Source: Micractinium sp. NFX-FRZ
Taxonomy: Eukaryota > Chlorophyta > Trebouxiophyceae > Chlorellales > Chlorellaceae
Length of the DNA: 64,000 nt
Direction of reading: 5' to 3'
Assembly (NCBI GenBank): GCA_029339195.1
Contig: JAPTJF010000119.1
Location: forward strand, 62,001 to 126,000
Shown here: piece after piece, positions 1-64,000 of the stretch
How the letters are laid out: every line of letters starts with the position of its first letter
Numbering within the stretch: position 1 is the first letter of the stretch
Translations under genes and position numbers: made by a program
Notes under the pieces: generated by a model
Told to the model about the DNA's origin: nothing
The model's input: the letters and a program-made list of their open reading frames with translations, nothing else
Databases searched by the model: none

Positions 1-187
1 ACAGTTCCAGGGTGGGGGCAGGTGAGGTAGAACCTGGCGAACACCCCCCAGTATCGAAGCCTGTAGGATGCCTGCTGCCTGGGCGGCAGCTCGCCAGCAC
101 TGGCTGCCGCCTGCCCGCAGCGCTCCTTGCAGAGCCTCTCCACCAGATCTTATACAATCGAACGTCCGGTCCACTTGTGAGTGCAGG

Positions 188-1434
188 ATGGACTCCCTGC
201 GCTCCCTGGGCTGCTGCCACATCTACAGGCAGCGGGACTACACCCTGGAGGGCGAAGGGGGGGATGATGCGCACGGCCCGCACGGCACTGCCGGCGCCGG
301 CAAGAAGCAGCCAGGCGGCGGCGAGATGGCATTTGACCCCATGTACTGCCCGCCCTCACCCACCATCATGGCCAAGTGAGGAGGCGCCTGCACGCCAGGG
401 GTCGGTCGTTAGGTGGCCAAGGGGGGGGGCTCGCGGGTGGTACAAGGCTTGCTTGCATGCACTGGCAGAGGTTGCGATCATCTTGCATGCTTTGGTTCTG
501 GCAGCACCCACCACGAATTTACCAACTGCCCGCGATGTTTGAACCTGCTGCAGGAAGGATGCCCTCCACATGTCGCCCACCCCCAGGGCGGGCAGCATCA
601 AGGCAAGCCGGGTGGCCCCTGAGCCGCTCAGCAACCCACCCGGTCCAGCTGGCAGCTCCAGTGGACCGGTGCAGCCCAGTGGTGGACCGGTGCAGTCCAG
701 TGGACTGTACCCTGTTGTGCACACTGGCAACGAGCCTCCGGTGCTGCCAGCAGTCGGCGGCTCAGCAGTCCCCTCGGTGCGGCTTCTGTTACTCTGCTCC
801 TCTTTTCCCGGCAGGCGGCTGGCCGTGCCCGTCTCCCAGGCCGGCTGCCTGCCCCCTCACGCTGCCCGCTGACCTCCTTAGCCCTGCCTCCCTGCCCGCT
901 GCCGCCCCGCGTTGCCCTGCGCCGCGTGCGTGTGGTCCATGCCCGTGCCCGCAACTCTCACGCTGCAGGTGCCTGACGATGTGGCGCTGCGGCTGGAGGC
1001 GGAGCGCGCCGCCCAGCTGGCAGGCCAGGCCTATGCAATGGTGGGTGTTGCCCTGTGTGAGGGGAGAGTGTAGGGCTGGGCTTGCGCGCCGTGGCGGCCT
1101 TCCTTTGTCCTGCCCAAAGCCCTGCTTCCGGTGTGTCGCACACCACAAAGCGTTGCCCTCCTCCGCCCGCTCACCGCTTGGCATGCCAAGCTCCCTCCCT
1201 CTGCCTGCAGGCCTCCCAAGCACAGGGTCTGCTGGACATCGTGGCCCGCTCCAACAGCCGCATCAGCGCATCGGGACAGCTGGGCGGCAGCGCACCCACC
1301 AGCCCCCACAATGCTTCAATGCGCAGCCAGTCCCCCTACAGCGCCAGCCCCTCGAGCCCGCCCCCCGCCCGAGGCGCTGCGGGCAGCTACGGCAGCTTCC
1401 AGTCACCCACCTTCAGCCCGCCGCCAGCCTGGTA
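188..1434 (+). CDS. Unrecognised protein, 3' part of a multi-exon gene (5' end probably left of the window or upstream)
   Basis: Four exons join in one frame: about 188-378, 551-776, 970-1039 and 1210-1434, with stop TAA at the end. The junctions are AA|gtgagg, TCG|gtgcgg and ATG|gtgggt donors with cag acceptors. The first visible exon follows a cag at 184-186, so the ATG at 188 may be internal and the real start may lie further left. The product holds a short Cys-Cys-His stretch (GCCHIYRQRDYTLEGE), a repeat rich in Gly-Pro-Val-Gln-Ser (exon 2), a short amphipathic helix (VPDDVALRLEAERAAQL) and a Ser/Pro-rich tail with SPPPA and TSPH motifs that look like phosphorylation targets. I do not recognise the family and assign no function. 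It runs tail-to-tail with the DnaJ gene. Confidence 0.5.
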
Positions 1435-2918: not shown

Positions 2919-5900
2919 TCACTGCATCGGCAGCACCTGCCGCAGCATCGCCTTCTGCCCGTCGTTCAGCTGCCGTGGGAACAGGACGTCAAACCTGCAG
3001 GCAGGCAGGGCAGCAGGGCAGGGTGGGTAAGTTCGGCCTCAGAATTGTGATGGACGGGGTAATGAATGAGACCCGGAGGGAGGTAAGCTGGCACATGTGC
3101 ACGCATGTGCGTGTAGCAACGACGCAAGAATCAGCAGCAGCGACACACTTGCAGACGGCACGAGCAGCGGCACCACAGCGCAGCAGCGCCGTCAGCGGCG
3201 CACAACGTCCGCCCGTCCAACGCGCGGGTCCGCCTTCCGCCCCTCTGCCCTGCCTCCCTTCTCGCCCTCTTGCTACTGTCCCTCTGCCCTCCCTCCTGCC
3301 CTGCCCACCTAACCCCTGCCCACCTGAGGCGCAGGTTGCCCTTCTGCCCGGGGTGCTTGGTCACCGGCATGCCCTCGCCCGCCACCACCTTCTCCGTCTG
3401 CGGGGAGATCACTTCCTGGATGGGAATGGACAGCGGCCGCCCATCCAGCGTCTGCAGCTGCACAACCGTGCCGCACAGCGCCTCTGCCAGCGGCAGCCTG
3501 CGGGGTGGCAGGCAGCAATGGGGGAGTGACAAGAGAGGGTGAGAGGGGCGGGCGAGAGCAGCAGGGGAGGGTGAGGTGCAAGCAGCGACTGGCGGCGGTG
3601 GCATCCCCCTCACATGCGGCTGTCCCTGCTGCTCAGTTCATTTCCCCCCGCCCTGCCCACCTCCCTGACACGGGCCTGCGCTGCCACCTCAGCATCTGGG
3701 TCCCTGCACAGCAAGCCTCTCTCACCCTTCACTGCCCTGTCCTGCACCCATCCCAAGCTACCCCATTCCGCCCTGCACCTTCGCACAGGCCGCTCCGCTC
3801 TCATACCCAACCCCATATTACTCACTTTCGCCCAGCCCCCTGAGCACCCGCACCCTGCCCCACCCCACCTGTGTGTGTAGACCAGGTCGTTCCCGTCCCG
3901 CTTGAACGTCGCGTGCGGCTTCTCCCTCAGAACAAACACAATGTCGGCGGCGATGCGCCCAGGGTTCTCGTCGCCTGCACGGGGGGCGCATGAACAAGCG
4001 CAGGGTTGAGAGGATGTACGACACACAAGCGCAGGCACACTGTCGGCGCCGGTGCGACCAGCGCTGCCTCGTTCTTGCCGCCTCCAGGGCAGAGGCACCG
4101 AGCGGTCCGCTCATGCCAGTGCAGCGGGCCACTACTGGGCAGGACCGGGCAGGCGCAGCGGGCAGGACCGCATTCACAGTGCATCCATGCAAATGCGCAG
4201 CACGGATCCTGCAGCACAGCCCGCCACCCAAGGCCCCGCCCACGTGCATGCACTCACAACACATCTATGGCGCACCCACCCTGCCCACCCACCCTTCTCC
4301 TGGAAAGTGATCTTGGTGCCCGCCTTCCACCCCGGCCGCACATTGATCTCTAGTATCTCGGCCTCCTGCCGCGGCTGCCCCGTGGCATCCAGCCGCTTGC
4401 GGCTGCACGGGACGAGGGTGGAGGAGCGGTTGGCTTGATACAGGTCGGGGTGGCAAACGCGCTAAGCCAGTACCTCTGCACCAGCCGCCCCCAAGTGGTC
4501 TGCCCAGTTGCGCTGTGCAGCTGCCTTGTGAACCAACCCCTGCAAGCGGCCCGGCGTTTCTATGACACATGCCGAGACCAAAACCCACTGTCACAGCGCC
4601 CCGGTGCGTCAGCAGCACGCCACAAGAGCAAGGCATGGCCCCACCTGATCTTCATGCGCCGCGTGGTGCCCTTGTACAAGTCCTCCAAAGTGCACTGCAG
4701 CTCCATCTCGTGGGCAGCGTCCTTCTTGGGCCGCCGATGGTGGTGCCCGTGCCCGCCGTGCCCGTTCATGCCTGGCACGCCTTGAGGGAGGAGGGCAGGG
4801 GAGCGATGTGTGGGCAGAGGAGGGTGGACACTCCACGTCAGCAGCGGGCAGGCTGGCTGGGCAGCGCGCATACATGCCACAGCACATCAAGAACGCCTGC
4901 CTGCACGCGTTGCCCGACAGCTCTTGGCACATAACGCAGCAGTACACAGCACAACCTCCAGCAAAGCCGCTGCCCATGCCCCTGCGCTGCCCCGACCCAA
5001 TGCTGCCTCCCCCCTCGACAAGACGCACCCCCCTGCCACCTGCACCCGCTCACCTCCAAATCCGCCGCTGCCCATGCCTCCCATGCCTCCGAAGGGCATG
5101 CCCCCCATGCCCCCTCCAAACAGGTCTTCAAAGCCGCTGCCGCCGCCGCCAAAGCCGCCGCCGCCAAATCCGCCGCTGCTGGCGCCGCGGAAGCTGCCTC
5201 CGCCGCCGCCGCCGCCAAAGCTGCGGAAGAACTGCGGGCGCCACGGGCGGACATTGCGGGAGAGGAGAGGGATCAGGGGGGAAGCTAGCAGCGACGCTGT
5301 GGAGCACACCTTGAGCGTCGCTGGAGCAAAACACGGGCTGGGTGATGGGACAGAGCCCTCGACTCGTTTGAGCGCAGATGGGCCTGGCAGCAAGACGCCC
5401 CCGCATCCAGCTGCCTTCGAACCTCCAAGGCACCGCAGGACCGGCCTGTGACTACCCTACTCCGCCCCAGCTCGCGCTTGCCCCGCCTCACACAGCCCGC
5501 CATGTGGTCACTCGCATGCTCGCAGACCCAACCCCAACCACCGCCCGCTCCGCATTGCTGCCCCTCCCCCTGCTCCCCGCCCCTGCTAACCCCCGTTCAG
5601 CACAGCCCCCCAGGGCGCCCCCCGCACCTCTGCAAACAGGTCGTTTGGGTCGCGGGGGTTGAAGCCGCCTGCGCCGCCGCCAAACCCGGCGCCGCCCATG
5701 CCGCCCTTCAGCCCCTCCTCCCCAAACTGGTCATACACCTGCCGCTTCTGAGGGTCCGACAGCACCTGCATATGAGACAAGAGGCGGGGCAGCCAGGCAG
5801 GCAGGGTCACGTCCGGCTCATGCAGCAAGTGTGGTTTCCCTGCTGCTGCTCAACGCTGCGGCGGCTCCCAGGGCGCCACATTCGGAGGTGCCCGCACCCC

Positions 5901-6687: not shown

Positions 6688-7185
6688 CTTTTGTGTGTCC
6701 GAGCCGAGCTAGATGGGCGCGGGAGAGGTGTCAGGAGAGGGAGGGGCCAGCGCCTTCTGGAATGGCACAATTTGGCGCCCAGTTGCGGGAGCCGGTGCGC
6801 CCGCTGCTATCAAATCCCAGAACGCACTGAAGCTGAGTAAGGTCGCTACGGCTTGCGGAGGAGGTTGGCGCGAAGGGCAGGAGTCTCGGTTCACAGGGCT
6901 AGCATCGGCTGCTTGGAAGAGTGAATTTACGGTGTGGAGTTGAGAGAGGATGGCCGGGCACGATGGTTGGAATGTGGGACGCCCTTCTCTTTGAAGAGCG
7001 CTTCTCCGACCATCTTGGCCACGGTGGCGGCTCAAAAGTCAAACACGCTCTCCTCGCTGAACAAAATTTCATTATCGCATCAAGAAGCGTCGCGATCACA
7101 GTATACGCCGCCCCGAACGCCTCAAAGGGACTGCGCCTCCAAGCCAGCTGCGTGCAGCTGCGCCTTGGAACCAACACGAGCAGCC
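6688..7185. promoter_or_regulatory. Divergent upstream region of DnaJ and the FYR-domain gene, with one heat-shock-element-like site
   Basis: About 500 bp lie between the two start codons. A TTCTGGAA at 6755-6762 matches the inverted TTCnnGAA core of a heat-shock element and lies 68 bp upstream of the DnaJ ATG, where regulation of an HSP40 gene would be expected. Further single GAA/TTC blocks occur near 6989-7003. One match of eight bases can arise by chance. No clear TATA box was seen. Confidence 0.35.
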
Positions 7186-10435: not shown

Positions 10436-13400
10436 TCACGCCAACGCCTTGGTCGGCTCAATCGTTAGCTCCATACGGCTGTCTGACACTCTCAACCTGC
10501 CGCTGCCCACCGTGACCCACTGTTGCTGCTGCTTGCCCCCGCCGCCGCCGCCGCCGCCCTGCTGCTTCTGCTGCTTCCGCTGCTCAGCAGCTGCCTGCTG
10601 CGCGGCGGCCCATAGGCGCAGGGGGCGGGAGACGTATCGCGTCATCAGCGTCGACACCTCCTTGGCTCCCTCTATTGGGAAGTCACCGTCGAAGTCAACC
10701 TGTGCAGTGGGAGGGTGTGTGTGTGGTGGTGGCAGGAGGTAAGCGGCACGGCGTGATGTGTATCACGTCAGGGTGAGAGGCTCCCTCGAGCAGAAACCAC
10801 CTGGCTGCTCATCTCTTTTTTTACGCAATGTTTGGAACAGAAACAGACAGCCTGTCCAACTCACATTGTCAATACTTGCAAACTTTCACCAGCATCCCAC
10901 CCACCCCACCCACCACCAAAGTAGTAGCTTCTCAAACACAACACATTGCCCACCTTGTCGACCAGAAAGTCCACCACCTCCGGGTCCCACTGCAGCCCGC
11001 CCAGCCTCCCCCGCTGCAGCTCCCCCGCCCGCTCCGCCAGCCGCATCTCAAACAGCTGGCGGATGTGGCGCCGCTCCAGGGGGAAGAAAGGGAGGAAGAA
11101 GCTGACTAGGCCCACCTGCAGGCAGCGGGGCAGGGGTGCAGGCGCATGTCACACACAGCTGCCTGCATGTCGGCACTGAAACGTTTGCGGAGTAACCGGG
11201 CCCTTGTGCAAGGGGGAGGGGCACGCGGGGCTGCGGTGGCCCCGGTGTGACGCCGCCTGTAGTGCATACAGCCCGCACTCCGCAGCTGCCGACCACACAC
11301 AGGAGCCACCTGCACGCCCCCGCCAGCCTCTTTACCGCACACTGCTGAAGCCACATATCGCAGTACTCGTGCACCCCGCGGCCCCCCATCCCTGCCCTGC
11401 CAGCCACCCACCATTTTGAGTGTATCGGACCGCTCCTCGCAGCCCTCTGTGAGCCAGCGGGCAAACACCATGTCCTTGAGCACGCGCTGCGCCTGCTCCG
11501 GGGAGATGCGGCTGCAGGGGCATGCGGGAAGGGGGAAGGGGTGGGGGGGTGGGGGGTCGATGGCTGGCACAGAAAATGCAATGCGAGCGTGGGCCCGCTG
11601 CCCGCCGGCAGAGCAGGCAGCAGGCTCCCGTGAGCCTACAACTCTCGTCGAGCCCCCGCTCTGAGCAGCGCGACATGCTGCGGCAGGTACCACGAAGCAG
11701 CCAGAGACACCCACTTCCCAACGTCTTCCGCATGCCCCCACCCACTGCGACCCTGCACCCTGAGCTCAGCAGCAACATGACCCCGCCTCCCGGCCAGCAC
11801 CCCACAGTCCCACAGCATCATGCACCCGCTTGCATGCACCCGCTTGCCTGCGGTCCCCCGCTGTGAGCAGGAGGTCGTGGAGCTCTGTGTACCCAAGGTT
11901 GGACTCCAGCACAACGATGGCCCTGCACAGCACAGCACAGCGCAGCATGGACAGCGTGTGTCAGCACGGCACACCTCAGGGCGGCGCGCAGGCAGAGGTT
12001 CGTGCAGGCTTGGAGGCGGGTGGCAGCGGAGGAGCAGCCAGTGAATGGGGCCTGATTGTGTGCAACCATGCGTTGGCGCCTCGAGCGGGACGGCAACACA
12101 GGCACGGCACCTGGCTGCTGCCTTCTTAGGTAGCGTTCGTGCCCGCTCAACACAATTCATCTCCCCTCACGTGCCGAGCGCGGCCTCCGACAGCAGCCCA
12201 CCCTGCTCCATGACCTGCGTGTGTTCCTCGCCCCGCCCCGCTCACTGAGCGTCACATCGGCAACCTGCCTGTCCTCTGGCAGCCCCTCCTCATCCCGCCC
12301 ATCCTTCCCCCCCATCCCCAGCCCGCCCCACCTGTTGAGCGGCCCCCACCTGTTGGGCGTGATGTTGGCCACCTGCCTGTCCTCTGGCAGCATCCCACCC
12401 TTCCTGAGTGTGTGTTATTTTCCCTGTGTGTTGTGCGCCCGCCCCCACCTGTTGAGCGTCACGTTGGCCACCTGCCCATTCTCCAGGAGCTGGCGGAAGA
12501 AGCCGCGCATGGGGCAGTCCAGCTTGTCGTACTCCTCCACAACCAGCACTGCGGGGGGGCGGGACAGCTGGCGCGTCGGGCATGTCAGGCGCACAGCAGG
12601 CACAGCAGGCACAGCAGCTTGTCGTACTCCTCCAAACACTCCTCCTCCACAGCACTGCACATGAGCAGGAAGAAAGCACAACTGCTGGCATGTCGGCCGC
12701 AGCGGACACAGCAGCTTCCGTGCTTTACCGTCACCAGCAGCTCAGTCAGGGAGGAAGAAGCAGCCCAGCTGGCACGTCATGGCGAGTCTGTGAGCAGGCA
12801 CGGCGGGTACAACAGGCGAAAGAGGGACCTGTTGCCCAACTGCTCTCACGTGACTCGGGTGCATGCCGCAGGTGCTCCAGCAGTGAGGCACGCAGCAGGG
12901 TGTGCTGCTCCTGCCGCGCATCTGCAGCATAGTCCATGCCGTACAGCACCTGCGGATTGCAATACATAAGCAAGCCAACAAAATAAATGGCGAGAGAAGT
13001 AGCAGCCTAGTCCATGCCAACAGCACCTGCTGTGGGCAAGGGGTGTTAGGCAGCGGACACCATGCATCTTGAGAGGCAGCGGCGGCATACTCCATTACCG
13101 GCAGCAACTGCCCCGCATTGCTGGAAAAGGGGTTCGCATGCAGGCACTCCACCGGTTCAAGGGGAGTGCAGGGCAGTGGGGGTGGAGCCACAACCTGCGT
13201 GTTGCATTCTGCCCGCCACTGCACCGCAGCAACGGATGCCCCCACCACCCTGCCCCACCTTGTAGCCCGCGCAGTCTATTCCCGGGCAGCGCACGTCTGG
13301 GCGCACCACCCTGTTGTACAGCGCCTGGGCTGCAAGCTGGTGGAACATGCTTTTCCCTACACCCGGCGGGCCGTGCAGCGACAGCACCAGCGGCCGCGCC

Positions 13401-16598: not shown

Positions 16599-16658
16599 CC
16601 TGGCAAGCGGCTGCACCTGTCGTGTTTGTTGAGTTGTACACCATGTTGCCTGTACAGA

Positions 16659-16663
16659 TGTAA
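16659..16663 (+). terminator. Poly(A) signal TGTAA of the CPR5-like gene
   Basis: TGTAA about 60 bp downstream of the stop codon. Confidence 0.5.
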
Positions 16664-21493: not shown

Positions 21494-23906
21494 ATGGCGC
21501 TACTGGTTCGCATTGCGCGGCAGACGGAGCTGCCCGAGGGCGGCAAGCTCGTGAAGGTGCGGGGGACGGGCCGCGGACGAGCTGTCGAGGCCCAGTCAAG
21601 AGCTGTTGCCGCCCTTCCATGCCCGGGTGGGCGGGCGAATTGGGTGCTGCGGGAGTGCCGGGAGGCCTGCCGGTACTTGGCCGCTGCCTGGGAGCACTGG
21701 TAGGGGCAGGGGCGCAGCACCGCTGCCGGCGCCTCCAACGGTCACCGGCAGCACCCACCACCCGCCTGGGTGCCTGGCCCGCTGGCTCAGCTGCATCCCA
21801 TCCACAGCACCGCACGCAGCCACAAGGCTCGCTGGAGGAACAGTGCCACAGTTTTGCTGGCCGCCGCAGTGCCTAGCCCCCAGCAGCACCCACGCGCCGG
21901 CCATCTGGTGCGCTGACCGCTGCCCCGCCTCCGCTGCCCCCGCCGCCAGCAGGAGTCGCATGGCCGCCGCATCATGCTGGCCCGCCTGCGGGGCCAGGTG
22001 TACGCCACAGACGCCAACTGCTTCCACATGGGCGGCAACCTGTGGGAGGGGGACATTGAGGACGTGGGCGGCCACGCCTGCGTCGTCTGCCCCTTGCACC
22101 GGTGAGCAGGGCTGGATGCGGAATGGTGCTGCAATGCGCGTGGGTGCACCCGAAAGCATGCTGCATGCAGCATTGCTTGGGGGAGTGCAGCGCCGAGCCC
22201 TTTAGTGCGATGAGCACCCACGTCAGCCAGTGCCGGTGCACCCAACAACCAACTAACCGTCCTCAGCAAGTCAGCTCGCGCTGCGCCCCTGCCAGGCTGC
22301 CTGCTCAGTAGTAGGATTGGATTCACATCTGCTTCCTCCCGCTGGTCATCTGTTCAGGTACCGCATCGACATGAGCAGCGGGCAGAAGGTGGACACCATG
22401 CTGGACGGCTGCGTCACCTGCTCCTCCCACCAGCAGCAGCGCACCTACAAGGTGTACAGCGACCCCGACTTCATCTGGTGGGCTGGGTTGGGGGCCATGG
22501 GGTGTGTGCCCGGGATTTGCGGTCGTTGTAAGTGGCGGCAACCTGTGTGCGCTGCGCGACCCCGACTTCTTCCAGTGGCAGCTGTTGGGGTGCTTGTTGG
22601 TGGGGTGGGGTGATTGGGGTGAGTTGATTGCCAGCGGGTCTTGACTGGTGGTAGCTGGTGAAAGGTAGCAGTCGTGCAGTTGTGGGTAACTGGCGGGAGA
22701 GATGCAGTGGATTGGCTGTGGGTGCTGTGTACACATGTGCAGCTGGCTGTGGGTGCTCATGGGTGTGCATGCAAAGCGTTGTGGGTGCAGCAGACCTGTG
22801 GTGAGGTGTGTTCTTGCGGAGCGGGTGCGTCAAGGGGCTTTGCTGTGTGGGTGAATGGGTGTGCAGCCGCCAGAGATTTGATACAATCGCCAGACGGCCG
22901 GCGTTGCCGAGTCGCCTACGACCTCCTTGCTTTCTCCCGGAGGCAGCCACACCCCGTTTACAACCCCAATTTTTCTGTCACCATACCACATTACTCGCAC
23001 CATTGCTCCTTTGACCTGACCTCGTCCCGTATCACCTCTTCGTCAACTCCCCATGCATGTCATCCCGGCATGCCCCTGCCCCCTTTATTCATGCCCTGCA
23101 GCGTGGACATCCCAGAGCTGCACACCCAGCAGCAGCTGCCCAGCGACCGCTACAACCAAGTGGCCCCTGTGCTGCCGCGAGCAGGTGCCGGCCTGTTTGG
23201 CCCGCAGACAGCGGGCGGCTTGGGCGGCGCCGCGGGCACCCCCGGACGCGGCCTGTTTGGCAGCAGCAGCAGCAGCGCTGCCGGCCGGGTGTCGGCGCCA
23301 GAGCCTCTGGCACCTTATGCGGGGTTCCACTCTGTTGGCCTGGTGCCCGGCACCCCCAGCAAGGAGGCGGCGGATGAGCCGGCGCTGGTGCTGAGCCAGG
23401 AGGCGCCCCAGCAGGCGCAGCAGATGCAGCAGGAGCAGCCACAGCAGCACCACTTTGCGCAGGTGGGCCGAGTTGGGCGGGTGTGATGGCACATCGTGCC
23501 GTGGGGTGGGGCACAGCGGCTTTCCCTGATGACACCTAACCATCCCCGGCTGCCAGTCATGCCCCAGATGGCAAGCTGCCCGAGTTTGCCGGTACTGTTG
23601 AAACATAGATCAAGTCTAACAAGCTGTCCCCCCGCTTCTTCCCAGCCCCCGCAGAGCCACATCCCCTTTGCCCAGTCGCGCGTGGACACCGCCCGCATCG
23701 CCCGGCGCAAGGCAGCCACCGCCGCCATTGCGGCGCGCGCCTACGCGCCACCCTCGGCGCCGGCCCGCGGCCTGTTCAGCGGCAACGCCGCGCCGACGGG
23801 CGCAGGCCTGGCCCGCCAGCAGTCTGGCGGGCAGCAGAGCTTGATGGCGTTTGGGTTCACTCGCAACCCGCCGGTCACTACGGGGCCCGAGGACATGGAC
23901 ATGTAG
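21494..23906 (+). CDS. RFESD: Rieske [2Fe-2S] protein, RFESD type, with long C-terminal extension
   Basis: Exon 1 (21494-21556) gives MALLVRIARQTELPEGGKLVK, and exon 2 starts at 21953. The cluster ligands are a Cys-x-His pair in DANCFHMGGNLWEGDIED and a Cys-x2-His pair in ACVVCPLHRYRIDMSSG; the second motif ends at an exon junction. The spacing and the GNLWEGDIEDVGG context match animal RFESD and soluble Rieske-type ferredoxins, an electron-transfer fold. Unlike those small proteins it continues with a long tail: GLFGPQTAGGLGG, Ser runs, a Gln-rich stretch and GRGLF/RGLFSG repeats, ending GPEDMDM. No membrane anchor or oxygenase domain is seen, so it is not the cytochrome b6f subunit. The redox partner is unknown. 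Confidence 0.85.
22459..22582. repeat. Donor-side exon echo in the Rieske gene
   Basis: Exon end and donor at 22459-22484 (codes SDPDFIW) recur at 22556-22582 in the intron. The block GCGACCCCGACTTC is identical in both. Confidence 0.75.
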
Positions 23907-24707: not shown

Positions 24708-27700
24708 TCACCCCCCCAGCATGAGGACCACCAGCACCGAGGCCAGGTAGGTACAGTAGGTGGCCACCATGGCCCAGCCGCACCAGGCGGGCAGCCACTG
24801 GCGGTGCGACAGGGACACGCCCACCAGGCAGGCGCAGTTGAGCATGATGAAGACGCAGCCGACGAGCACCACGGGGTCCATTTCGACCGCAGCACGCGTA
24901 GCGTGCTCCTCCTGGAGCAGCGCCCAGAACCCCAGGCCCAGCCCCACCAGCATGTTGAACAGGGGGCCGGCAAAGCAGGCGGTCATGGCCATGGAGTGCC
25001 CCCCCCGGCTCCTGCCCGCCATGGCGGTGTTGTTCAGATAGTCCATCAGGCTGTTGCCCCAGGCCAGCACCGTCACGCCCAGCACAGCGGGCTCCACCTT
25101 GCTGCAGATGACAGGCAGGAGGGGTGGGGTGAGGGACATGGAAGGGGGCCCGGCTGTGAGGAGAAGAGGAGGCAGGGTGGGCGGCAGGCGGTGGAAGGCG
25201 GAGCACAGCAGGGAGGCCAGGCAGGCCGGCGGAGGCAGGCAGAGGCAGAGGATGTGGAGCACGGGCAGGCCGCACGGGCGGCGGCACCTCGACTGCTCCT
25301 CAGCTGCACAACAAGCGCCCTCTCTTCCCGCGGTCCCTCCCTCTGGCCCCCCGGCGCTTCCCGCTGTGTGCCCCCGCTGGCGCACCTCAGCATGCCAAAG
25401 AACTGCAGCAGGCCGACGATCTCTGAAGCAAAGAGGGAGATCCACATGGCAGCCACGCCAAACCCATACACCGCCACAAGGGCGGCGCCTGCAGGCAGGG
25501 CGGAAGCGAGAGAATGTGGGCAAGTGCGCAGGATAGTGACGCCTGCCACCATGCTGTGCTGCCTCGGGGCACGCCGCACCGAGGCATCACAGTGCAGCAG
25601 CAGGGGAGAGGCCCAGCACACCCGCCGCCCCGCCCACCTCTGGCCCATTGCACCCCATGCCCAGCATCCATAGCGACCCATCACACTTTATCGCCTGGCT
25701 GACCGCCCACTCTCCCCAGCCTGTCCAGCACCCTGCAGTACCTACCTATGGGGTACCCCGTGCCCAGCGTCCACAGCGGCGCCTTGCCCTGCAGCTGCCG
25801 GGTGCCCAGGTGGCCCGCCGCTGCCAGCGCAGCCCCCGTGCACGCCGCAATGAGCAGCGCCTGTTTAGGGGTGGGAGGCATGCGGAGTGTAGTAGTGATG
25901 AGGCCCAGTTCTGTGACAACCAAGGCCTGCCAGCCGTGCATTGCGGCACTGCAGGTGACCCTGCGTGACCAACTGCCCAACTCCTGCCTCTGTTTAAAGC
26001 GAGGGGCCTGGCTGTTGGTCTTCCATGCCCCCCTGCATGCGTCCCACGGCTGGCTGCCTTGGTCCCCCAGCCCTGCCCAACCCAGCTGCTACCCACCTGC
26101 CAGTCGAAGAGGTGGAGGTAAGCGACGATGAAGAGTGGGGAGGCGGCCAGGCTGCGCAGGAACCAGCGGCGCTGGTAGCTGTTGGCCTCCACCAGAGGGA
26201 TGGTGGACTGGAGGGAGGTGGTGAGGGAACACGGCGGGAGGTGAAGCGTAAGGGTATGCTGGTGCTAATTGATGGTGGCTGGTCCCTTCTCCCTCATCCC
26301 TTGTCTACTGCCTCTCCCACCCTGCCCCGTTTAGCCACACTACATCTGCGGCAGTGCGAGCAGCTGCCTCTGCCGCCACCCCTACCCCTGCCTCCCGCCA
26401 GAAATGCTTTGCCTCCGCACAACCAACCCCACTCCTTCCCTGCCCCGTACATCCACACCCACCTGCAGCAGCAGCAGCAGCGGCTTCTGCACCGTCTCAG
26501 CCGCCTGCTGCAGCCGCCCCTGGGGCCCCTGCTGCGCCTCCGATCCCTCCGCCTCTGGCGGCGAGGCCGCTGCGGGTGGCGCCACTTCTAAAGAGGCCAC
26601 GCTGAAGTGGAGGGTGGAGGCCCCGGAGGCCCGGGACCCGCTCCCAGACTGCTGCTGCACCAGCTGCCGCCCAGCTTGGCTGGCGACTGTTGGGGAGTGC
26701 CAGCCTCCAGGCGGGGTTGCTGCCCCTCCGCCGCCCGCCTCTCCCTCTCTCCCTCCTGCTGCTGCCGCCGCTGCCGCTGCCGCCTGTGCCGCCTCAAACT
26801 CTGCCACCGCCTCCCGAGCTGCCAGCAGAGTGGCATCCAGCGCTGCCACTGGCGGGTGAACGCCATTGCTGCCGCCGCTCCCGCCGCCGCCTCCGCCTCC
26901 GCCGCCGGCCCAGCGTGCGCGCCCGTGCGCCGGCGAGTGCGCACGCGCTGTGCCTGCTGCGCCCTGCTCTGCCCATTCGGGCGCCTCATATCCGTACCCC
27001 TCCTCCTCCTCCCCACTTAGGAACGCGTCGCTATCACTGTCACTCCTGTCCTCCTCCTCCACGCGCCCGTTCCCACGTGCAAAGAAGGACTTGGACTGCG
27101 GGCAGGGGGCCCACGTGGGGGCGGGGAGGGTGCAATGCATGTTGAGGAGCAGCAGGCATGCACGACTGAAGGACAGGTCAAGATTGCAGCTACGCATCAT
27201 CTTCGTCAGGTGGCGGCCACCTTCAGCCTGCCAGTTCCTTTGTTTGATGCCTTGGCTCTGCACCATATCCGCCAGCTAGCCCCGCAGGCAGGCAGGCGCG
27301 CAGCCTGCTCGCAAAATCAAGTACCCCCCATTCTACCAGCCCATTCAATCACCGCCTCGCCCTCCCATCCACTATCTACGCCCTCCCTGCCCAGCGCACG
27401 CTGTGCACCCGCCGCTTCCGCTGCCGTACAAAACCCTACCCCACCTTGCTCGCGCACACCCGCCTGCCCCACCTGCGCCATCTCTGCCAGAGCTCTCTGC
27501 CGGTACTCTTTGGCAGACATCTGGACAATGTCACCATAACTCATGTGCGGTTGGAAGTGGGCCACAGGCGGGACGTGCCTGCAGGCAGAGGGAAGGGAGT
27601 GGAAGGACCCAGCAGGTTGAGGTGCGGTAAGGCAAGATCGAGCAGCGTCTCAGCCGGCGGCAGCAGCGGGCAGCGCAGCGCTGCGCCACCCACAGAGGAG

Positions 27701-30786: not shown

Positions 30787-35731
<4,945 letters not shown>

Positions 35732-38556: not shown

Positions 38557-38589
<33 letters not shown>

Positions 38590-41500: not shown

Positions 41501-44500
41501 TGCCTGCCGTGTGTCCGTGCACTTTGCAGTGCGGTGTGCGGACCTGCACTTGTAACACATGGCCTGAACTTGCCTTCAGCTTCCTCTCTGCTGCTCCGCC
41601 CCGCCTCCCTGCGCAGGAAGCTGCGCGAGCTGCTGCTCCGAGCCCGCCTCTCCATTGCCTCGGAGTTCCTTCAGGAGGGGGAATACGACAATGCCTATGA
41701 CCTCTTGACCCTCCTGGATGGACGGGCAAGCCAGGCCAGGCTGCTTGGGCTGCCCACCTACGCACACGTGTCGATGAAGCAAAAGGCGAGTGTTGCACCA
41801 TGCTCGGCTGCGGCTGCCGGGGGCTGCATGCATGTGCGATCGCATCCATGCATGCTGGATGCATTCAGCATCCCACCGAACGCGCCGCTGCACAGCATGT
41901 GCATGGCCCATCTCCCACTGCGCCCGGGGCCCACGAACCTCCATCTGCATCCTGTTCCAGTGCCGCACAACCCGGTGGGACTCACTTGCCGGCCTAATCG
42001 CTGCTGAAACGCTGGAAGGGTCTCATGCCGTGAAAGTCCCGCCCTTGCATACGCCTTTCTGTCCACCGCCCAGCAAAGTGCCCACCCACCTCCCTGCCCG
42101 TCAATCATAACCTGCAGATGGCCACCCTGAGCAAGGCGACTGCGCTGTTGGACCAACTGACAAAGTGAGCATCCAACGGCCTGCACGCCCTTCTATCTGG
42201 AATCTGCCCTCACAGCGTAGCTGCGTGGGTTGCTGTGGCGTGTTGCAGCCTGCGTGCCCACCTTCCCGCCCGCTTATGGACCCTCCCCCTGCTCCCAACA
42301 ACACCTTGTGGCGTGCAGGTACAGCAAGCCTGCCTCCAGGCTGGAGCTGGCTGAGCTCACCGCTTTCGCGAGGTCCAGGGGCTTCAACCAGACCCTGCAA
42401 CTGTGGGATGTGGTGCGTGCCTCCACAGCTTTTGTTGGTGTGCTCATGCTCTGTTTTGTGCGAGTTACGTGCCTGGTGGGGCATGCACATGTGAGCGGTC
42501 AGGCTGCATTTTGTGAGACGTGGTGCGTGCCTTTACAGCGTTGTAGCGCGGCTGTGTGCTGTCCAGCTGCCTGTGCTGCACCCTTAGGCTAGCACAGCCC
42601 GTGTACATCTCTGATTCTACTCATCATGCTGTCGACATCGGCAGATGGGGTTGCTGTGTTTGCCAAGCCCAGGTTGCGCGAGTGGGTCCACTCAAACCCT
42701 GGCCTCTGGATGGCGACCTGTGCATCTCCAGCCTGAGTGCCTCCTCGTCTCCCCCCTCCCGCACATGTGCAGTCCTACTGGAAGAGGGAGTTGAAGGCCG
42801 CCAAGTTCAAGCTGAACGGTGGGCCCACTCCTCATTGCTTGCCCACTTTGTTTGCTGCATTGCTGGCCAAAGGGGGTGGCAAGCGTGGTTGGGTGGGCTC
42901 AACACAGTGAAGCTTGATGCGGTGCGGGCGTCGCAGCATGCATTGAAAAGAAAGAAAAGAAAAGAAGAGTACGCCCTTGGGCGTGGGTTGAGGAAACCAG
43001 CGGAGGTTTGGATCCCTGTCGGGGGCCACCTCCGCTGGTTACCGCAGCATGCACTGTGTCCATGTGAGTTGCCTGCCCCCGCCAGCTGCCGCCTCAAGTT
43101 CTGGCCCCAGCAACCTCTGCTCTGCCGCTTGGTTCCGCCACCGGTGGCTGCCTGCCAGGCAGCTGCTGCTTGCCATCGCCCACCCCTTCCACTCCTCATT
43201 TGTGTGACTGCCACGGCGCACTCAAAGACGCCCCACTTGCCCAACACCCCTGGCCTCTATGCCATGCTCCTCCGTCCCCTCCTCCCCTTCCCGCGCTGCT
43301 TCAGAGGACCAGCTTGCCCCCTACCTCTCGCTGCCCGCCGTCCTCGAGGCCGTCTTTGCCACTACTGAGCGCCTGTTTGGAGCCAAGTTTGTGGCCGCTG
43401 ACGGACAGCAGCCGGTGAGAAGTGCCGCCGTCCCATGTGCACCCCGCGCCCCGGCGGCGTCTCCCATGCCAAGTGCCTCCTCCTGGCTACCTTTCCGTCA
43501 TGAGTTTCCCGCTCATTGCCTTCCATCTGTAGGTGTGGAACCCCGACGTGCGCTTCTTCAAAGTACTGCTGCGTGGGAAGCTGAAGGGGCACCTGTACCT
43601 CGACCCCTACTTCCGCCCCGGCATGAAGCAAGCCGGCCTCTGGCATGCGCCGCTGGTGCGCCAGAGCCGGCTGTTTGCGCCACCTGGCGCCCCTGTGCGC
43701 CTGCCAGTATCAGTTGTGGTGGGCAACCTCCCTCCGCCGGCGGGCGGCAAGCCCTCCCTGCTCTCCTGGCGGTGAGTGCCCGACAGTTCACTGAAGTGGC
43801 CTCCTTGCAATCGTGTGAGCTGGCTTGCCTTCTATATAACAGTGTCTCCGGATGGACCTCCCCCTCCCCATTACCGCCTGCCACCCCGTTGTGTGTGCTG
43901 ACTGTGAAGCGGAACCGCCCTTGCCTTGCAGGCCTGCCTGCCTGCCTGCCTGCCTGGCTGATCTGCTTGCCTCCAATTGACGAAGCCAAAGGACTGTGCA
44001 TTGCACTCACCTGTCTGCACTTCTGTGCTGCCCCTCTGTGTGCCTGCAGTGACGTGACCAGCCTGTTCCACGAAATGGGTGAGACTGTTTGCTGCGGTCT
44101 GGTCATCGGGCTCATGCTGGCGCATGCAAGCAGCAGGGGGGCGGCCTGACGTGTTTTCCTGCGCCTGATAACATCCCCACCACACTGCGGGCTCCCAGCC
44201 AGCGCCGGCCTGCACAGAGGGCCGCGTGCCTTGCAAAATGGCAAGCTGCACAGCAGGCGGCATTCTGCACTGCCCGTGCACGAGGGCAAGCTGCACAGAA
44301 GGCGGCAAGTTGCGTGCACAAGGTTGTGCAGAGCAATGTGCGGGCCTGCTGTTGAGATTGGGCGTGTGTCTCAGCTGCTCCAAGCTGCAGCGTGGCGTGG
44401 ATTAAGGGGCACAACCCCTGCTTCCTCTTGCTGCTGGGGATTTGGCGCCCAGCTGTGTGCTTTGCCCGCCCCCCAACCCCCGCAGGCCACGCGATGCATC

Positions 44501-47718: not shown

Positions 47719-50700
47719 TCATGCTGAGGTGGCGCGCGCGCGAATCTCCTCCTCATACAGCTCGTGGTCAAAGGCCCACACGCCTGCGAATTGACAGGTC
47801 AACAAGCCGGGGGTTGTGTGCTTGCATAAGAGCTCATGAGCAGATGCAGGGGGCAGACACTGAGCTGGGGTGGACCCACCCAGCGCTGCCACACCTGCCG
47901 CACGCCACAACCTGCCGAGCACGCCGCCACATTCACATGCTGTGGCGTGCTCTGCTGGGCTGCCTCCCCTCAGCTGAGCCTCCCCTCCCCACACAAAGGT
48001 GCCTCCCTGCTGATGCACATGCCTCCCACGACACGCTGGCTGGCCACAGGCAGCTGGCTCCCCTCCCTCACCGTGGCCCTTGCCCACGCGCCGCAGCTGG
48101 CTCACATAGTCTGCCGCCTTCTTGATGTCCTCGGCCTGCAGGGAGGGGTTTGGCCAAATTGGTCAGCTGCTGTGTCAAGTAACCAACCACAACAGAGGGA
48201 GGAGCAAACAAGTCAGTGCAGGCAATGGTCAACCTGTTATGACCCGACCTGATCCACCCCAAGCCTGAGGCTGGAGCAGCGGGAAGGCCCAGCTGCTGCA
48301 GCAATCAGCAGAGCAAATTTTTAAGGGTTGCCGTTTCCCGCCCTTCTTAGTGCTGTCAATCAGCTGATGGTTCGCGTGCCGCCCTGCCCCACCTGGTCCT
48401 GCAGCATATCCTCCACATACTGGGTCAGCTGCGGGTCGCCGTGCTTGTCAACCACCTGCGAGGAGGGAGGGAGGCGACGCACGGGGGGGAGCCGTCCTGC
48501 ATCAGCTTGTATGGGTGCCAGGATGCTGCGCCTGCCGGGGAACGTCCGCCCTGCACATCCGCGTTTGGGCCGCCTGGTTAAGGGGCATCCTCCCAAGCGC
48601 AGGCCCACTCCCCAACGCACCGGGGGGCTACCATTCTGTCTGAACTAGGTGCAGTGTCTGATCTGCCCAGCCCTCAGCAGTGCCCCGTCACCTCCCACAA
48701 GTGCTGCATACGCCCAGCACCCAGCAGCAGTGCCCGCTCACCTCCCACAGGTTCATCAGTTTGTCGAAATTCAGCTTCTCCAGGCTGAGGCCCAGCTCCA
48801 TTGCGTACAGCGCATCGCCTGCGGTACAGGCAGGGGTGCGCAGGGTGCGAGGAGAGGCGGTACATGGCGGCAGGTGAGGCCGTACGGCCATAGCCACCGC
48901 AAACACCCGCTCGACGTCCTTCCTCACCCCCACTGCCGCCCGTCTGGGTAACACAGCAAACAACTACAAAGAAAAACAAACACACTCACCCTTCTCCGGG
49001 TGCTCGTACTCGGTCTCCGGCATGAGGATGGTGCCCAGCTTCACCCGCCCGCCGCGCGTGTTCTGCAGGTCGATCAGCTTCTGCAGCGGCGGGAAGGGGG
49101 AGCAGGAAGTTCAAGGGTGGAGGGTGCGGGAGGGAAGGCTTGAAGAGTGGGAGGCAGAGGGGCAGGTGGGCGGGTTGCTCATCTTTCTGCGAGGTCCAAT
49201 GGGAAGCAAGCCCCCGCCTGCGCTCGGCCCTGTGCGACACCTCACCCTCCTTCTTTCCTGCTCATCCCCCGCCTATCCTCCAGGGAGGTGTGACTGACGC
49301 ACCGCATGCATGACCAGGCCTACACACACGTGTCTTGTTTTGCCCGCCAATGGCGCACACGTCAGCTAGGAATGTTGCGAGACCGCCTTGCCTGCGCGTG
49401 CTCCGGCTCTTCCAGCAAGTTGTAATTGTGACGTACCGCCTCTGCCACCTCAGCCTGCCAACAACAGCCCCCCCACACAATGCGTTCAGGAGAAAACTGC
49501 TTGCCTGCGCGTGCCCCCGCTCCTCCAGGGAGTTGCGGCGAAAGTACTCGGCGAAGCCGGGCAGGCTGACGGTGTCGCGGTCAAAGTAGCTGCGGGGTTG
49601 GGCGCGGGGGAGGGCAACAGATGGAGGGTTGAGGTGCCTTGCGGATGACCGGGCAGGCTGAGGGCGCCGCGATGGGAGAGGCTGAGCTGGAAGGGGCAGG
49701 CAAGGCGGGCCATGGCAGTGCTGCCGGTGTTGCAGGCAAAGAAGCAGCAGGCGTGGGCGCAACGATGGTGTGGGGATTACGGGCAAGGAAGGCTGCAATT
49801 TAGAAGTGAGCACAGCCAGCCAGGCTGATGGGTGCTTCGCGGTTCATGGCAATGCTACACACCGCACCATGCTACAGAGGCAGCACAGAGGCGGCACAGG
49901 GTTGCCCCCCCATGCGGGCGCTCTCTAGCAGTGACTCACCAGGCCATCGAGTGGTAGACATAGGAAATGTTGTCTGCAGGGGAAGGTGATTGGAGAGAAG
50001 GTGGGGAAAAGGCGGGAGGGGCGGTGATGGGGGCAGGCAGCAGGGCGGGTTGGTAAAGCCAGGGCTAGCTGCAGGGAGCCGGAGCAGGCATGTGTGCTCT
50101 GTGCACCCCCTGCCAGTCCCGTTTCAAGCCAGAGGCGTCACCTGCTCTCAGTCTTCTGACCTGCTGACAGGCAGCAGTGTGTGATTTGCTGTGTAAAGCC
50201 ACTGGCCAGTTGACGACGCATCACACGCCTCCCCAGCCGCTACCTCGCACTCAATGTTGGCCTGCTTGTTGATGGCCGCCTCACACTAGAAGGGCCGCTG
50301 ATCCACACCATCCCCCCAAGGCCCTCTTGATAATTCAAACCACACCCCCCACTCACACTCGACGTTGACCTGCTCGTTGATGGCCGCCTCACACGGGACC
50401 TCGAACGTCTTGAGGCGCGCAAAGGAGGCGCGGGGGTCGGCCCCACCAGACCCGGTGCTGGCGGTGCCGGCGGTGCCGGCCAGCACAGGGGCCACCTGCA
50501 GCGAAGGAGGGCGGAAGAGCAGTGGGCTCAGCAGTTCATTAAACAACCACGCTTACGGTGAAGGGCTCGTACGGAATCAAGGGCAAACAAGGGCTTGAGT
50601 TCCGCCCCCATGGACAAAGCGTGCAGTGCGTGGCAAGCACAGGGGCCACCTGCAAGGGAAGGCGCGGGCAGGGGCTGCGCACAAGATGTGCCACGCATAA

Positions 50701-61076: not shown

Positions 61077-61318
61077 AATGGGTCGAGACAATGTAGGTGC
61101 GATTCGTGAAATTACAGGAGTCCGGATGCGTGAAGTAGATGTACAAGACAGAGGTTTGAGCACAGTGTTTGGGGCGCATGGAGGCGCTGATGTGGCGTTG
61201 GCGGGCACAGCGGCTGTCGCAGAACCAGCCTCACATTGTACATGCCCGTCCATGCTGTCAGTGCTTCTGTGTACATTTGCATGTTGCGCTGGCGCTACAA
61301 TGCAGCCGCCCGCGCAAG

Positions 61319-64000
61319 TCAGGACCGGGGCTGCTCGCCAGGCGGCAGCAAGCGCTCAAGCCCGGACTCGAGGCGGTCCGCCTCGCTGGCGCCACCAAAG
61401 CGCCCGCTGGGAGAGGACGCGTCGCCGCTGCCGCTGCGCTGGGTGCTGCCGCTGCCGCCATCAAAGTCGTTGTTCCACAGCGCGTTGAATTGGCCCCGGC
61501 TGAGGGCCAGCAGGCTGATCGTGCCCAGTGTGAAAGGCACCAAATACAGCAGCGCCGGCTGGCCTTGGTCACCAAACCAGCTGAACCACAGCGCGCAGTA
61601 CGTGACCAGCAGGCCCGCCCCGTAGCCGCCCACGCAGGGCAGGTAGTAGGAGCGCGCCAGCGGCAGGCGGTGCAGGCTGTCGAAGCGGCGGCAGAAGACG
61701 GCCAGCAGGCCGGGGAGCACGACGTCGCCTGAACAGGGGAGGGAGGAAGGGGTGTGGTTGGTGGTCGGCAACAATGCAAGTGGGTGCTCTACATTTAGCA
61801 ATGAGGAGCTTCAGACAGATGGCAGGGGCGAAAGTGCAGCGCAGCACCCGCTGACTCACCTGCCCTGCTGCACCTGTGCACTGCAAGCTCGGCATCCGCC
61901 CTGGTTGGGCCCACACATGCCCCGCACTCCCCGGGAGCCCCTGGCAGCTCACCCAAGCTTAGCAGCTGCTGCCCGTCCTATTCACTGCCCAAGACCACAC
62001 GCCGCTGCAGGCACGGTGCCCAGCCCAACCATCCCACCGCACTCGGCACCTCCCAAGGGGGCTCACCCAGTCCTAGCAGTGCAAACGCCGGGTTGGTGCC
62101 CAGCGATGAGTGGGGCACGCGCAGCACCATGGGCAGCTGCTCGTGTGAGGACCCGCCGGTCGCCACCTCAATCATCACGCTCTGCCCGCCCGTCACCAGC
62201 GGCTGGAGGAACACCCACCACACGTCTGCGGGGGGGGGAGCAGAGGGAGGAGGGGCAGGAGGAGGGTTGGGTCAGCAAGGGAAGCGGGCTGTCTGCTGCG
62301 GGGACATGTAGTGAAGGGGCGCAGGCAGGGACGCAATCGCCAAACAACACTCGAACTGACATCAACGGGGCGGGCTGAGAACCTGTCAGCTGCGGGCGCA
62401 GCTACGTCTGCAGGCACAACCACATCCGCAGGGCACAGCCATTGCACGTCAGCTGGCCGCGTCAGGGCACAGCAGGCAGGTGCACGGTACCTGCATCTCT
62501 TTACAAGCAACCCCTGTGCATGCTCAGTGCATGCGAGGCCAAGGCCACAGCAGGCAGGCCCACAATGCCCTCAGCACTTCCCAAGCTGCCCCCGGGCATC
62601 CGTTGCGCACCGTACACAAAGGCGAGGCAGAGCAGGATGGAGGCGACCTTCAGGTTTGGCAGGAAGAACTGCCTGAGGATGACCAGCATGAAGCAGATGC
62701 CCATGGCGTCCTGCAAACAACGCAGGGGGGTGGTGGGGATCAAGAAAGTGGAGGTCAGCTGGGGGGCAAGGGCAGGGATGGATGCTGGAGAATGGTGTGA
62801 AAAGGTGAACAGGTGCACATGTTCACGGCGGTTTGCGGGGGCAGGGGTGCAGTGGCGGGGTGGTGACACGAGAAGGCGGGAGGGCGTGCAAGGAGGGTGC
62901 AGTCAAGAGCAAGAGGGAGTCCGAGACGTGGTGTGCACAGTGTGGCAGGAGGGCCAGCAGGCCCACCCCCAAACCCTACATGGCCCCACAACACCTCCTC
63001 CACTGCCCCTGCAGCACCCCTGAAGCAACACCCCCCGCGCCCCCACCTGCAGCGGCCAGGTCCAGGGCGCGTTGTGCCACACCGCCCAGACGATGCACAG
63101 CGCGCCGCCGCCAGCTGTCGCCAGCACGCCGTTGACCGGCACCACCCCCGCCCAGGGCAGGCGCACGTGGCTGGCGCGGCACTGCTGCGACGTGAAGTGC
63201 TGCAGCGCTGAGTAGGCAACCATGCCGGTGGCCTGCCAGGCGCCCAGGGCAAACATGCCCACCTGCAGCCAGGCGGAGGAAGGGCGACAGGGAGGAAAGG
63301 AGGGAGGGAAGGAGGGAGGGAGGCTGGGTGAGGGAGGGAGTGGATGAGTGAGGCAGGGTGGAGGGAGCTTGACAAGCGCATCCCCCCAGCCGGCAACCCA
63401 GCAAGCTTGCCTTGACGCGGCCCGCTTGCACCACATCTCGGAAGCACTGTGCATGCGCAGCGCGCAAGTCAGGTCCACCTCGGCATGCATGCATACCCAC
63501 CAGCATGCAAGGCATGCATGCCATCATCATCCAAGCCAGCCCCCGCGCATGCCAGCTCCGCACCCCCTTCACACCAGCCCTGCACCAGCCCACACTTCAA
63601 CAGCCCCACTCTTGAGCAGCCCAACGTGCGCACCAGTATGTAGGCCAGCCAGCGGTCCAGGAAGAAGAAGAGGAGCACCAGCATGGCGGAGGCGACCAGC
63701 ACAAAGCCCACCGCCGCCTGGCTGCTGATGGTCACCGACGGCACGTCGCCCGCGCCGCCGGCGCTCTTCTTGGCCGTCGGGGTGCCGGAGTCGCGGCCCA
63801 GCGAGGCTGCGTGCGCTGCCCACAGGGGTGCACCTGCCACCACGGATGTGGCCATCAGCCAGAGGGCGACGGAGGACCAGTCGATGGGCCCCTCTGCCGG
63901 CATGCGCAGCGTCACCGCCAGCTCAGCAGCTGCCGGGTGCGGGTGCGCTGCCACCAGCGCTGCCAGCGCAGCGCCCGCCTCTGCTGTGAGGCTCACCACC
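61319..64000 (-). CDS. SPPL: Signal-peptide-peptidase-like intramembrane aspartyl protease (SPP/SPPL), 5' end outside the window
   Basis: Cleaves membrane helices of type II proteins in the endomembrane system. The open frame runs off the right edge (past 63999), so the N-terminus is missing; an SPPL2-type protease-associated domain could lie there but is not visible. Helices in VGFVLVASAMLVLLFFFLD, AMGICFMLVILRQFFLPNL and VASILLCLAFVYDVWWVFL. Both catalytic motifs are present: YD in FVYDVWWVF and GLGD in ALLGLGDVVLPGLL, each assembled across an intron. The PAL motif is in GQPALLYLVPFTLG. The tail is cytosolic and Gly/Ser-rich (NNDFDGGSGSTQRSGSGD), ending GEQPRS. It follows MCMDC2 on the same strand, with 242 bp between. 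Confidence 0.9.

What the first reader, a model, noticed from the sequence alone, without database searches (positions are those of the whole stretch)
1..64000. Introns hold degraded copies of the neighbouring exon edge, splice site included ('exon echoes')
By eye I found about 16 cases in at least seven unrelated genes (DnaJ, torsin, Rieske, exchanger, adenylosuccinate synthetase, M3 peptidase, ferritin). Each copies the last 20-60 bp of an exon plus its donor, or the acceptor plus the first bases of an exon, 50-250 bp into the adjoining intron. The best cases keep 19-24 identical bases; the worst are barely visible, as expected from ongoing decay. Family-independent recurrence argues for a genome-wide process. 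A known idea is intron gain or growth by tandem duplication of a segment containing AGGT; here many stages seem to be preserved. A rule linking the copies to splicing, such as decoy splice sites, is also possible.
Basis: partly seen in the sequence, partly recalled or inferred. Interest (0 to 1): 0.9.

Follow-up and report, generated by a model that had tools for sequence, protein, structure and literature searches.

The report
Tandem-duplicated exon edges inside introns
In this probably algal genome about one intron in eight still carries a decaying copy of its own exon edge, left by short tandem duplications, mostly of about 110 bases, that straddle the splice junction and lengthen the intron.

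Summary
A self-trained gene finder gave 503 introns (112 in the window, 331 in a genome sample, 60 held out). Exon edges match their own intron at score >=12 at 103 of 1006 junctions; edges of other genes predict about 7.

They are decayed tandem duplications. The offset is 90-135 bp in 43 of 65. In 13 of 24 strong cases homology clearly continues into the intron. The exon-derived copy differs almost evenly over codon positions. Introns with a copy are about 96 bp longer. AGGT-type intron birth is not the cause: offset equals intron length in 1 of 103.

One feature exceeds a random-phase model: the exonic part is at most 64 bp in 65 of 65 edge cases, where simulation predicts a steady fall to about 110 bp. 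Selection against long exonic copies that compete for splicing is the likeliest cause; this is inferred. An apparent junction hot spot vanished after calibration. No conserved decoys were found.

The parts
4966..4980 (-). DnaJ gene: copy of exon 3' edge (original 5064-5078), offset 98
   Evidence: 15/15 identical
4036..4061 (-). DnaJ gene: copy of exon 5' edge (original 3937-3962), offset 99
   Evidence: 22/26
12342..12377 (-). torsin gene: copy of exon 3' edge with donor (original 12441-12476), offset 99; a further intronic pair lies at 12246-12283 and 12354-12391
   Evidence: 33/36
12615..12634 (-). torsin gene: copy near the exon 5' edge (original 12520-12539), offset 95
   Evidence: 20/20
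13002..13030 (-). torsin gene: copy of acceptor and exon start (original 12924-12953), offset 77
   Evidence: 27/30
22556..22578 (+). Rieske gene: copy of exon end with donor (original 22459-22481), offset 97
   Evidence: 20/23
25652..25675 (-). Na/Ca exchanger gene: copy of exon end (original 25755-25778), offset 103
   Evidence: 21/24
28827..28865 (-). Na/Ca exchanger gene: copy of acceptor and exon start (original 28724-28762), offset 103; homology continues into the intron
   Evidence: 34/39
31640..31683 (+). adenylosuccinate synthetase gene: copy of exon end with donor (original 31512-31555), offset 128
   Evidence: 36/44
32280..32323 (+). adenylosuccinate synthetase gene: copy of acceptor and exon start (original 32372-32414), offset 92
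   Evidence: 38/44
32572..32610 (+). adenylosuccinate synthetase gene: copy of exon end (original 32437-32475), offset 135
   Evidence: 32/39
33161..33200 (+). adenylosuccinate synthetase gene: copy of exon end (original 32889-32929), offset 271
   Evidence: 35/41
34069..34106 (+). adenylosuccinate synthetase gene: copy of acceptor and exon start (original 34211-34247), offset 141
   Evidence: 29/38
35001..35030 (+). adenylosuccinate synthetase gene: copy of exon end with donor (original 34887-34916), offset 114; with gaps the pair spans 34887-34978 and 35001-35084
   Evidence: 29/30
41588..41607 (+). M3 peptidase gene: weak copy near exon start (original 41630-41650), offset 42
   Evidence: 19/21
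42512..42530 (+). M3 peptidase gene: copy of exon end with donor (original 42402-42420), offset 110
   Evidence: 17/19
49714..49751 (-). ferritin gene: copy of a called acceptor edge (original 49560-49596), offset 155; the called acceptor is doubtful
   Evidence: 30/38; 14 extra residues against 7xz4
50244..50286 (-). ferritin gene: copy of exon end with donor (original 50352-50394), offset 108
   Evidence: 38/43
50632..50654 (-). ferritin gene: copy of acceptor and exon start (original 50478-50500), offset 154
   Evidence: 22/23
28317..28436 (.). tandem duplication of period 59 called intronic on both copies (adjoins a predicted exon end at 28317), a comparison case
   Evidence: 54/62

Best explanation
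Short tandem duplications, with a usual unit of 90-135 bp at junctions and a smaller class near 30-65 bp inside introns, arise in many places of this genome. When the unit straddles an exon-intron junction, the outer copy stays as the working exon edge and the other copy becomes intron. Shown by sequence: both copies, head to tail in the best cases; the offset; intron lengthening by about one unit; decay of the exon-derived copy almost without regard to codon position; faster divergence of the intron-derived part. Inferred: exon edges stand out because the exon copy is held by purifying selection while copies lying wholly in introns decay on both sides; units carrying more than about 60 bp of exon are removed because the second splice site with that much exonic context would compete with the real one; the duplications come from repair of staggered breaks or closely spaced nicks.
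For: Direct repeats are far denser at 20-200 bp spacing than beyond 1 kb. Inverted repeats of the same strength: 0 at 20-150 bp against 97 direct (10 inverted hits do occur at 150-200 bp). Offset 90-135 bp in 43 of 65 cases. Intron-side homology in strong spanning cases: 13 of 24 in the top 5% of mismatched pairs, median rank 0.01; alignments over much of the unit. Divergence of the first 20 exon bases 0.161, of intron +8..+40 0.336, mismatched control 0.409, in 26 strong spanning cases. Mismatch by codon position 0.129, 0.137, 0.158 over 1799 bases. Introns with a copy 345 bp, without 249 bp; echoes in 1 of 113 introns under 200 bp and 23 of 66 over 400 bp. Exonic part at most 64 bp in 65 of 65; random-phase simulation through the gene finder predicts 17.1 hits at depth 60 bp, 2 seen with 2.0 by chance. 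Exon-part identity spread from 70 to 100%, 9 of 65 at 98% or more. Adenylosuccinate synthetase aligns to 1dj2 with no large insertion over the echo junctions.
Against: No sister species, reads or RNA-seq could be used, so no duplication is polarised and no splice choice is seen. Gene models are predictions; the ferritin model has 14 extra residues. Weaker spanning cases show intron-side homology in the top 5% in only 2 of 5 and 2 of 10. The exon-length cap is explained by selection only by inference; no relation of exonic length with loss of the copied site was found (8 of 10, 18 of 23, 14 of 18 kept). The 65 cases were found with the 40 exon bases next to the junction, so copies of deeper exon alone are not among them; at exon depth 72, 2 of 645 windows match at score 13 (0.2 by chance), and at that score the deficit is not significant at depths 72 and 84 (P 0.15 and 0.13). 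Loss of copied GT (5 of 13) rests on few cases and was looked at after the fact. Two sampled loci (63 introns) show no case at score >=13. Per-gene rates are uneven (chi-square 113 on 50 df).
Confidence: 0.85

Rival explanations
1. Duplication is targeted to splice junctions, for example by transcription-linked breaks or nucleosome-free DNA at intron ends, rather than random; breakpoints avoid exon cores.
For: In a uniform-rate simulation the observed signal falls faster than predicted on both sides of the junction, to 0.11-0.19 of the junction rate 108-120 bp into the intron against about 0.6 predicted. 32 of 75 local duplications cross a junction against 16.8 +- 3.8 by circular shift. Exonic parts end within 64 bp of the junction.
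Against: The intron part of the very same events is itself detectable in only 8 of 54, so intron-only events are mostly invisible; 61 distinct intron-only events are seen at score 14, of which 33 have an offset of 60 bp or more, at least as many as a uniform rate predicts (my arithmetic from its figures). G or pyrimidine content at echo junctions is ordinary, p=0.22 and 0.79. Exonic length does not track unit length, r=0.00, n=51.
Confidence: 0.15
2. The copies are kept as functional decoy splice sites or alternative sites.
For: Copied acceptors, in cases whose alignment spans the site, score almost as high as real ones (median 7.51, n=25, against 7.63 for acceptors without an echo), and AG is kept in 10 of 12.
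Against: Retention of AG equals the neutral expectation (9.7) and GT falls below it, 5 of 13 against 9.9. Where the site took part in detection, retention was also near expectation: GT 11 of 16 (11.9), AG 20 of 23 (17.6). Exon-derived bases decay almost evenly. Offsets are not clearly multiples of three: 26, 18 and 21 of 65 for remainders 0, 1, 2.
Confidence: 0.05
3. Introns were born by tandem duplication of an exonic AGGT segment.
For: This is a documented route (PMC4974935 sections 3 and 5 read; PMC2891723 passages read).
Against: It predicts offset equal to intron length; 1 of 103 fits within 6 bp. In strong cases the unit contains intron sequence.
Confidence: 0.02
4. Assembly artefact or composition bias.
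For: Offsets near 100 bp could suggest a read-length effect; the genome is 65% GC with low-complexity stretches.
Against: Edges of other genes and antisense edges give almost nothing, nor do inverted repeats at 20-150 bp. Copies are diverged, with the exon-intron difference expected from evolution. Reads were not available to test it directly.
Confidence: 0.02

Closest known systems
[quoted passage not shown] potato RdRp case, PMC4974935, abstract and sections 3 and 5 read)
   Same: A tandem duplication crosses one intron-exon boundary; splice signals are copied with it. The same paper mentions an 83 bp duplication inside the first intron.
   Different: Here an existing intron appears to grow; births of new introns are not seen. 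Here about one junction in ten shows it, not one gene.
Novel Drosophila intron positions by tandem duplication (PMC2891723, passages read)
   Same: Regional tandem duplications within genes.
   Different: There coding segments with a proto-splice site become introns of the size of the duplication; here offset and intron length differ in 102 of 103 cases.
Short tandem duplications from staggered breaks: rice insertions (Vaughn and Bennetzen 2014, not held, seen only as described and cited in PMC7407515 passages) and CST/Pol alpha-primase fill-in (PMC8355091, passages read)
   Same: Short direct duplications.
   Different: The present study adds a decay series, visibility at exon edges and a limit on the exonic part; the repair pathway was not tested here.
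Introners (PMC9860276, search listing and start of abstract only)
   Same: A genome-wide process that shapes introns.
   Different: Introners are dispersed copies of an element; here each copy comes from the adjoining exon edge.

Membership tests
Short tandem duplication | Direct orientation, same strand | tested here: met
   97 direct and 0 inverted at 20-150 bp; antisense edges 1 and 2 of 443
Short tandem duplication | Homology continues through the whole unit, copies head to tail | tested here: met
   Met for strong spanning cases: 13 of 24 in top 5% on the intron side, alignments of the 16 strongest; inconclusive for weaker ones (2 of 5 and 2 of 10)
Short tandem duplication | Random phase relative to exons (expected of an untargeted process, not part of the strict definition) | tested here: not met
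   Exonic part at most 64 bp in 65 of 65; simulation. Read as selection after the event
AGGT intron gain by tandem duplication | Offset equals intron length | tested here: not met
   1 of 103 within 6 bp
AGGT intron gain by tandem duplication | Intron absent from orthologues | not testable with these tools
   states that the genome has no relatives here; the protein search was switched off
Patch-mediated or fill-in break repair product | Breakpoint microhomology and size set by nick spacing | not tested
   breakpoints are blurred by decay; no call addressed them
Functional decoy splice site | Copied site conserved beyond neutral expectation | tested here: not met
   AG 10 of 12 (9.7 expected), GT 5 of 13 (9.9 expected); few cases
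Introner | Many similar copies in unrelated introns | not tested
   intron bodies were not clustered against each other; the copies here match their own exon edge far more than edges of other genes do

The most novel reading that the evidence does not exclude
The 60-bp limit on the exonic part is a footprint of splicing: duplications are born at any phase, but those carrying more than about 60 nt of exon beside the copied splice site are lost because that much exonic context lets the second site win. Introns with echoes would then be a natural record of how far exonic splicing information reaches, readable in any genome that makes such duplications.
Probability: 0.4. Interest if true: 0.75.

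Novelty: new variant of a known kind. Interest (0 to 1): 0.58.

Why it matters
How introns lengthen is often ascribed to transposons (recalled, not from a call). Here a simple process, apparently still going on, leaves readable traces in about one intron in eight (62 of 503) and in about a third of introns over 400 bp (23 of 66). Each trace carries an internal clock: one copy held by selection, one free. That gives neutral substitution spectra, and the cap on the exonic part gives a possible way to measure selection on competing splice sites.

Tried and rejected
First gene-finder training broke down into very many tiny exons because lengths were not normalised; replaced.

A junction hot spot for duplication seemed likely. 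It was dropped when one search showed that the intron part of known events is detectable in only 8 of 54.

Filler or non-tandem copying (direct repeats flanking unrelated sequence) seemed likely from the short aligned blocks; permissive alignments and flank tests showed the unit continuing into the intron in strong cases.

Tests that gave nothing clear: splice-site strength at echo junctions (p=0.18 and 0.53); G or pyrimidine content; offset modulo three; echo fraction against coding score or GC3 (p=0.15 and 0.06). The exon-only splice-site test (GT 10 of 24, AG 12 of 26 kept) was biased, since alignments stop at mismatches, and was replaced. In one search the flag 'unit wholly inside intron' was written wrongly for acceptors and was not used.

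Papers: seven searches showed no title or abstract start on genome-wide exon-edge duplication in introns. They cover only the held open-access library and those terms, and for I saw only the 12-15 best of 47-447 papers.
Full report
Setting. The window is G000:C119:62001-126000 of an assembly of 66,065,352 bases in 838 contigs, 62.5-66.5% GC by 4 kb blocks. A green alga of the Chlorella kind is my inference from composition, gene content and size; no call confirms it. I fetched 200 kb from ten contigs and 40 kb from two more.

Gene models. I wrote a two-strand semi-Markov gene finder, trained on the window and the 200 kb sample: 65 genes; 443 introns in genes of 450 or more coding bases; median intron 258, median exon 119, donor AG|GTGRG, acceptor TGCAG|G. 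Applied without retraining to 40 kb it gave 60 further introns, 503 in all. Adenylosuccinate synthetase aligns over 424 residues with 1dj2 without large gaps. Pfam finds DnaJ, torsin, Rieske, ferritin and M3 peptidase in five other models, and Na/Ca exchanger in the first 317 residues of its model. The ferritin model carries 14 extra residues at the start of exon 49463-49589 against 7xz4, so its acceptor is probably miscalled. The remaining models were not checked against relatives.

Is it there? Queries of 40 exon bases plus 8 intron bases were aligned to the adjoining intron and, as control, to introns of other genes. At score 12 or more: donor 42 of 443 against 2.7 expected, acceptor 45 of 443 against 3.1; antisense 1 and 2. 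At 16 or more: 18 against 0.06 and 22 against 0.05. Window and sample agree and so does the held-out set. Edges of the neighbouring intron of the same gene match in 13 of 884 for donors and for acceptors, and farther ones in 23 and 27 of 3746. Without any gene model, direct 14-mers are far denser at 20-200 bp spacing than beyond 1 kb, and a second mode lies at 90-130 bp; inverted repeats are absent at 20-150 bp, with 10 at 150-200 bp.

What is copied. Of 65 cases at score 14 or more, 43 have offsets of 90-135 bp, 5 of 60-89, 3 below 60, 6 of 136-165 and 8 above. They lie in 62 introns of 28 of 61 genes. In strong spanning cases homology continues into the intron: 13 of 24 rank in the top 5% against mismatched partners, median rank 0.01; for weaker ones 2 of 5 and 2 of 10. 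Permissive alignments of the 16 strongest show the unit running on, so that exonic plus intronic parts add up to about the offset in the clear examples (my reading). This is a tandem duplication that straddles the junction. 15 of 65 junctions hold a second copy at score 12.

Decay. In aligned exon parts, mismatches are 0.129, 0.137 and 0.158 by codon position over 1799 bases, as for a copy free of coding constraint. In 26 strong spanning cases the first 20 exon bases diverge by 0.161, the intron part by 0.336, mismatched controls by 0.409: roughly one-sided against two-sided decay. Exon-part identity runs from 70 to 100% with 9 of 65 at 98% or more, so the process looks continuing; many of these alignments are short (median 28 bases). 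Genes with many cases include adenylosuccinate synthetase (6 of 10 introns), and genes with none include long coiled-coil-like proteins (named by eye from sequences printed); slow exons should show echoes for longer. That reading is an inference; correlation with coding score was weak.

Intron growth, not birth. Introns with a case have median 345 bp, others 249; in the 443-intron set, removing the offset gives 240.5 against 250. Cases occur in 1 of 113 introns below 200 bp, 4 of 114 at 200-250, 12 of 112 at 250-300, 22 of 98 at 300-400 and 23 of 66 above 400. Chance matches at score 14 are few in every length class. Offset equals intron length in 1 of 103, so the AGGT model of intron birth does not describe these.

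The limit on the exonic part. The exonic part is 19-64 bp (5th percentile to maximum), median 36, at most 64 in 65 of 65 cases, with no relation to unit length (r=0.00, n=51) and only a weak one to exon length (r=0.24, p=0.056). I simulated 1677 random-phase duplications in real introns and passed them through the gene finder: detection stays high for exonic parts of 60-80 and more than 80 bp (0.81 and 0.74 at score 12), and hits per window should fall slowly with depth: 1, 0.86, 0.71, 0.60, 0.47, 0.35, 0.25, 0.12 for 0 to 84 bp. Observed counts at score 11 with chance in brackets: 62 (2.6), 38 (3.6), 20 (3.6), 12 (3.5), 7 (2.7), 2 (2.0), 2 (1.5), 0 (1.2); at depth 60 the model, scaled to depth 0, expects 17.1. 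At score 13 the deficit holds at depths 24-60 (P 0.002 or less) but not at 72 (2 seen, 4.8 expected, P 0.15) or 84 (0 seen, 2.0 expected, P 0.13). So long exonic copies are missing or rare. Selection against competing splice sites with full exonic context is my preferred reading; breakpoints that avoid exon cores are the alternative. Neither was tested directly.

Is the junction a hot spot? One search suggested so, and a circular shift test gave 32 of 75 crossing against 16.8 +- 3.8. But for the 54 crossing cases with offsets 60-170, the intron part alone is detectable in 8. 61 are seen at score 14, 33 of them with offset 60 or more (two of these at 184 and 185), about 4 by chance. With a different count, 39 of 1281 intron-internal windows match against 1.5 by chance. 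In intergenic DNA 10 of 810 windows match against 4.2 by chance; at score 16, five of seven hits lie in one locus. I conclude that birth need not be targeted; the exon edge is simply where a duplication stays readable.

Decoys? With detection on exon bases alone, reaching the junction, the copied AG is kept in 10 of 12 (9.7 expected) and GT in 5 of 13 (9.9 expected). Where the site took part in detection, GT is kept in 11 of 16 (11.9) and AG in 20 of 23 (17.6). So there is no sign of kept decoys, and a hint that copied donors are lost faster. The hint rests on few cases and was found after the fact.

Known work. Junction-crossing tandem duplication is described for one potato gene (PMC4974935), and tandem duplication as a source of new Drosophila introns (PMC2891723). 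Break-repair origins of short tandem duplications are described in PMC8355091 and PMC7407515. I saw no genome-wide account of exon-edge duplication and intron growth in seven searches, limited to the held library and to the listed papers. I file this as a new variant of a known kind.

Noticed in passing
window 28317-28436; L007 1013-1116; L020 8132-8246: Tandem duplications of period 55-59 with both copies called intronic form a second size class; intron-only offsets run at about 28-66 and 70-115.
   Followed up: partly
L002 15-93 and 200-277; L003 9045-9125 and 9477-9791: In the first 20 kb of contig C1 there is a cluster of diverged local repeats in DNA without gene calls.
   Followed up: no
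L011 788-828 and 899-939: In a gene that looks by eye like a calcium-dependent protein kinase, the gene finder accepts the copied exon edge as an extra exon (39/41 identical, offset 111); it may be a recent duplication or a real extra exon.
   Followed up: partly
exon parts of the copies, genome sample: The exon-to-copy substitution counts could give a neutral substitution spectrum; my rough arithmetic, assuming 65% GC in the aligned bases, suggests an equilibrium GC near 60%.
   Followed up: partly
window 49463-49589: The ferritin model has 14 residues too many at this exon's start against 7xz4; the acceptor is probably about 42 bp further in.
   Followed up: partly
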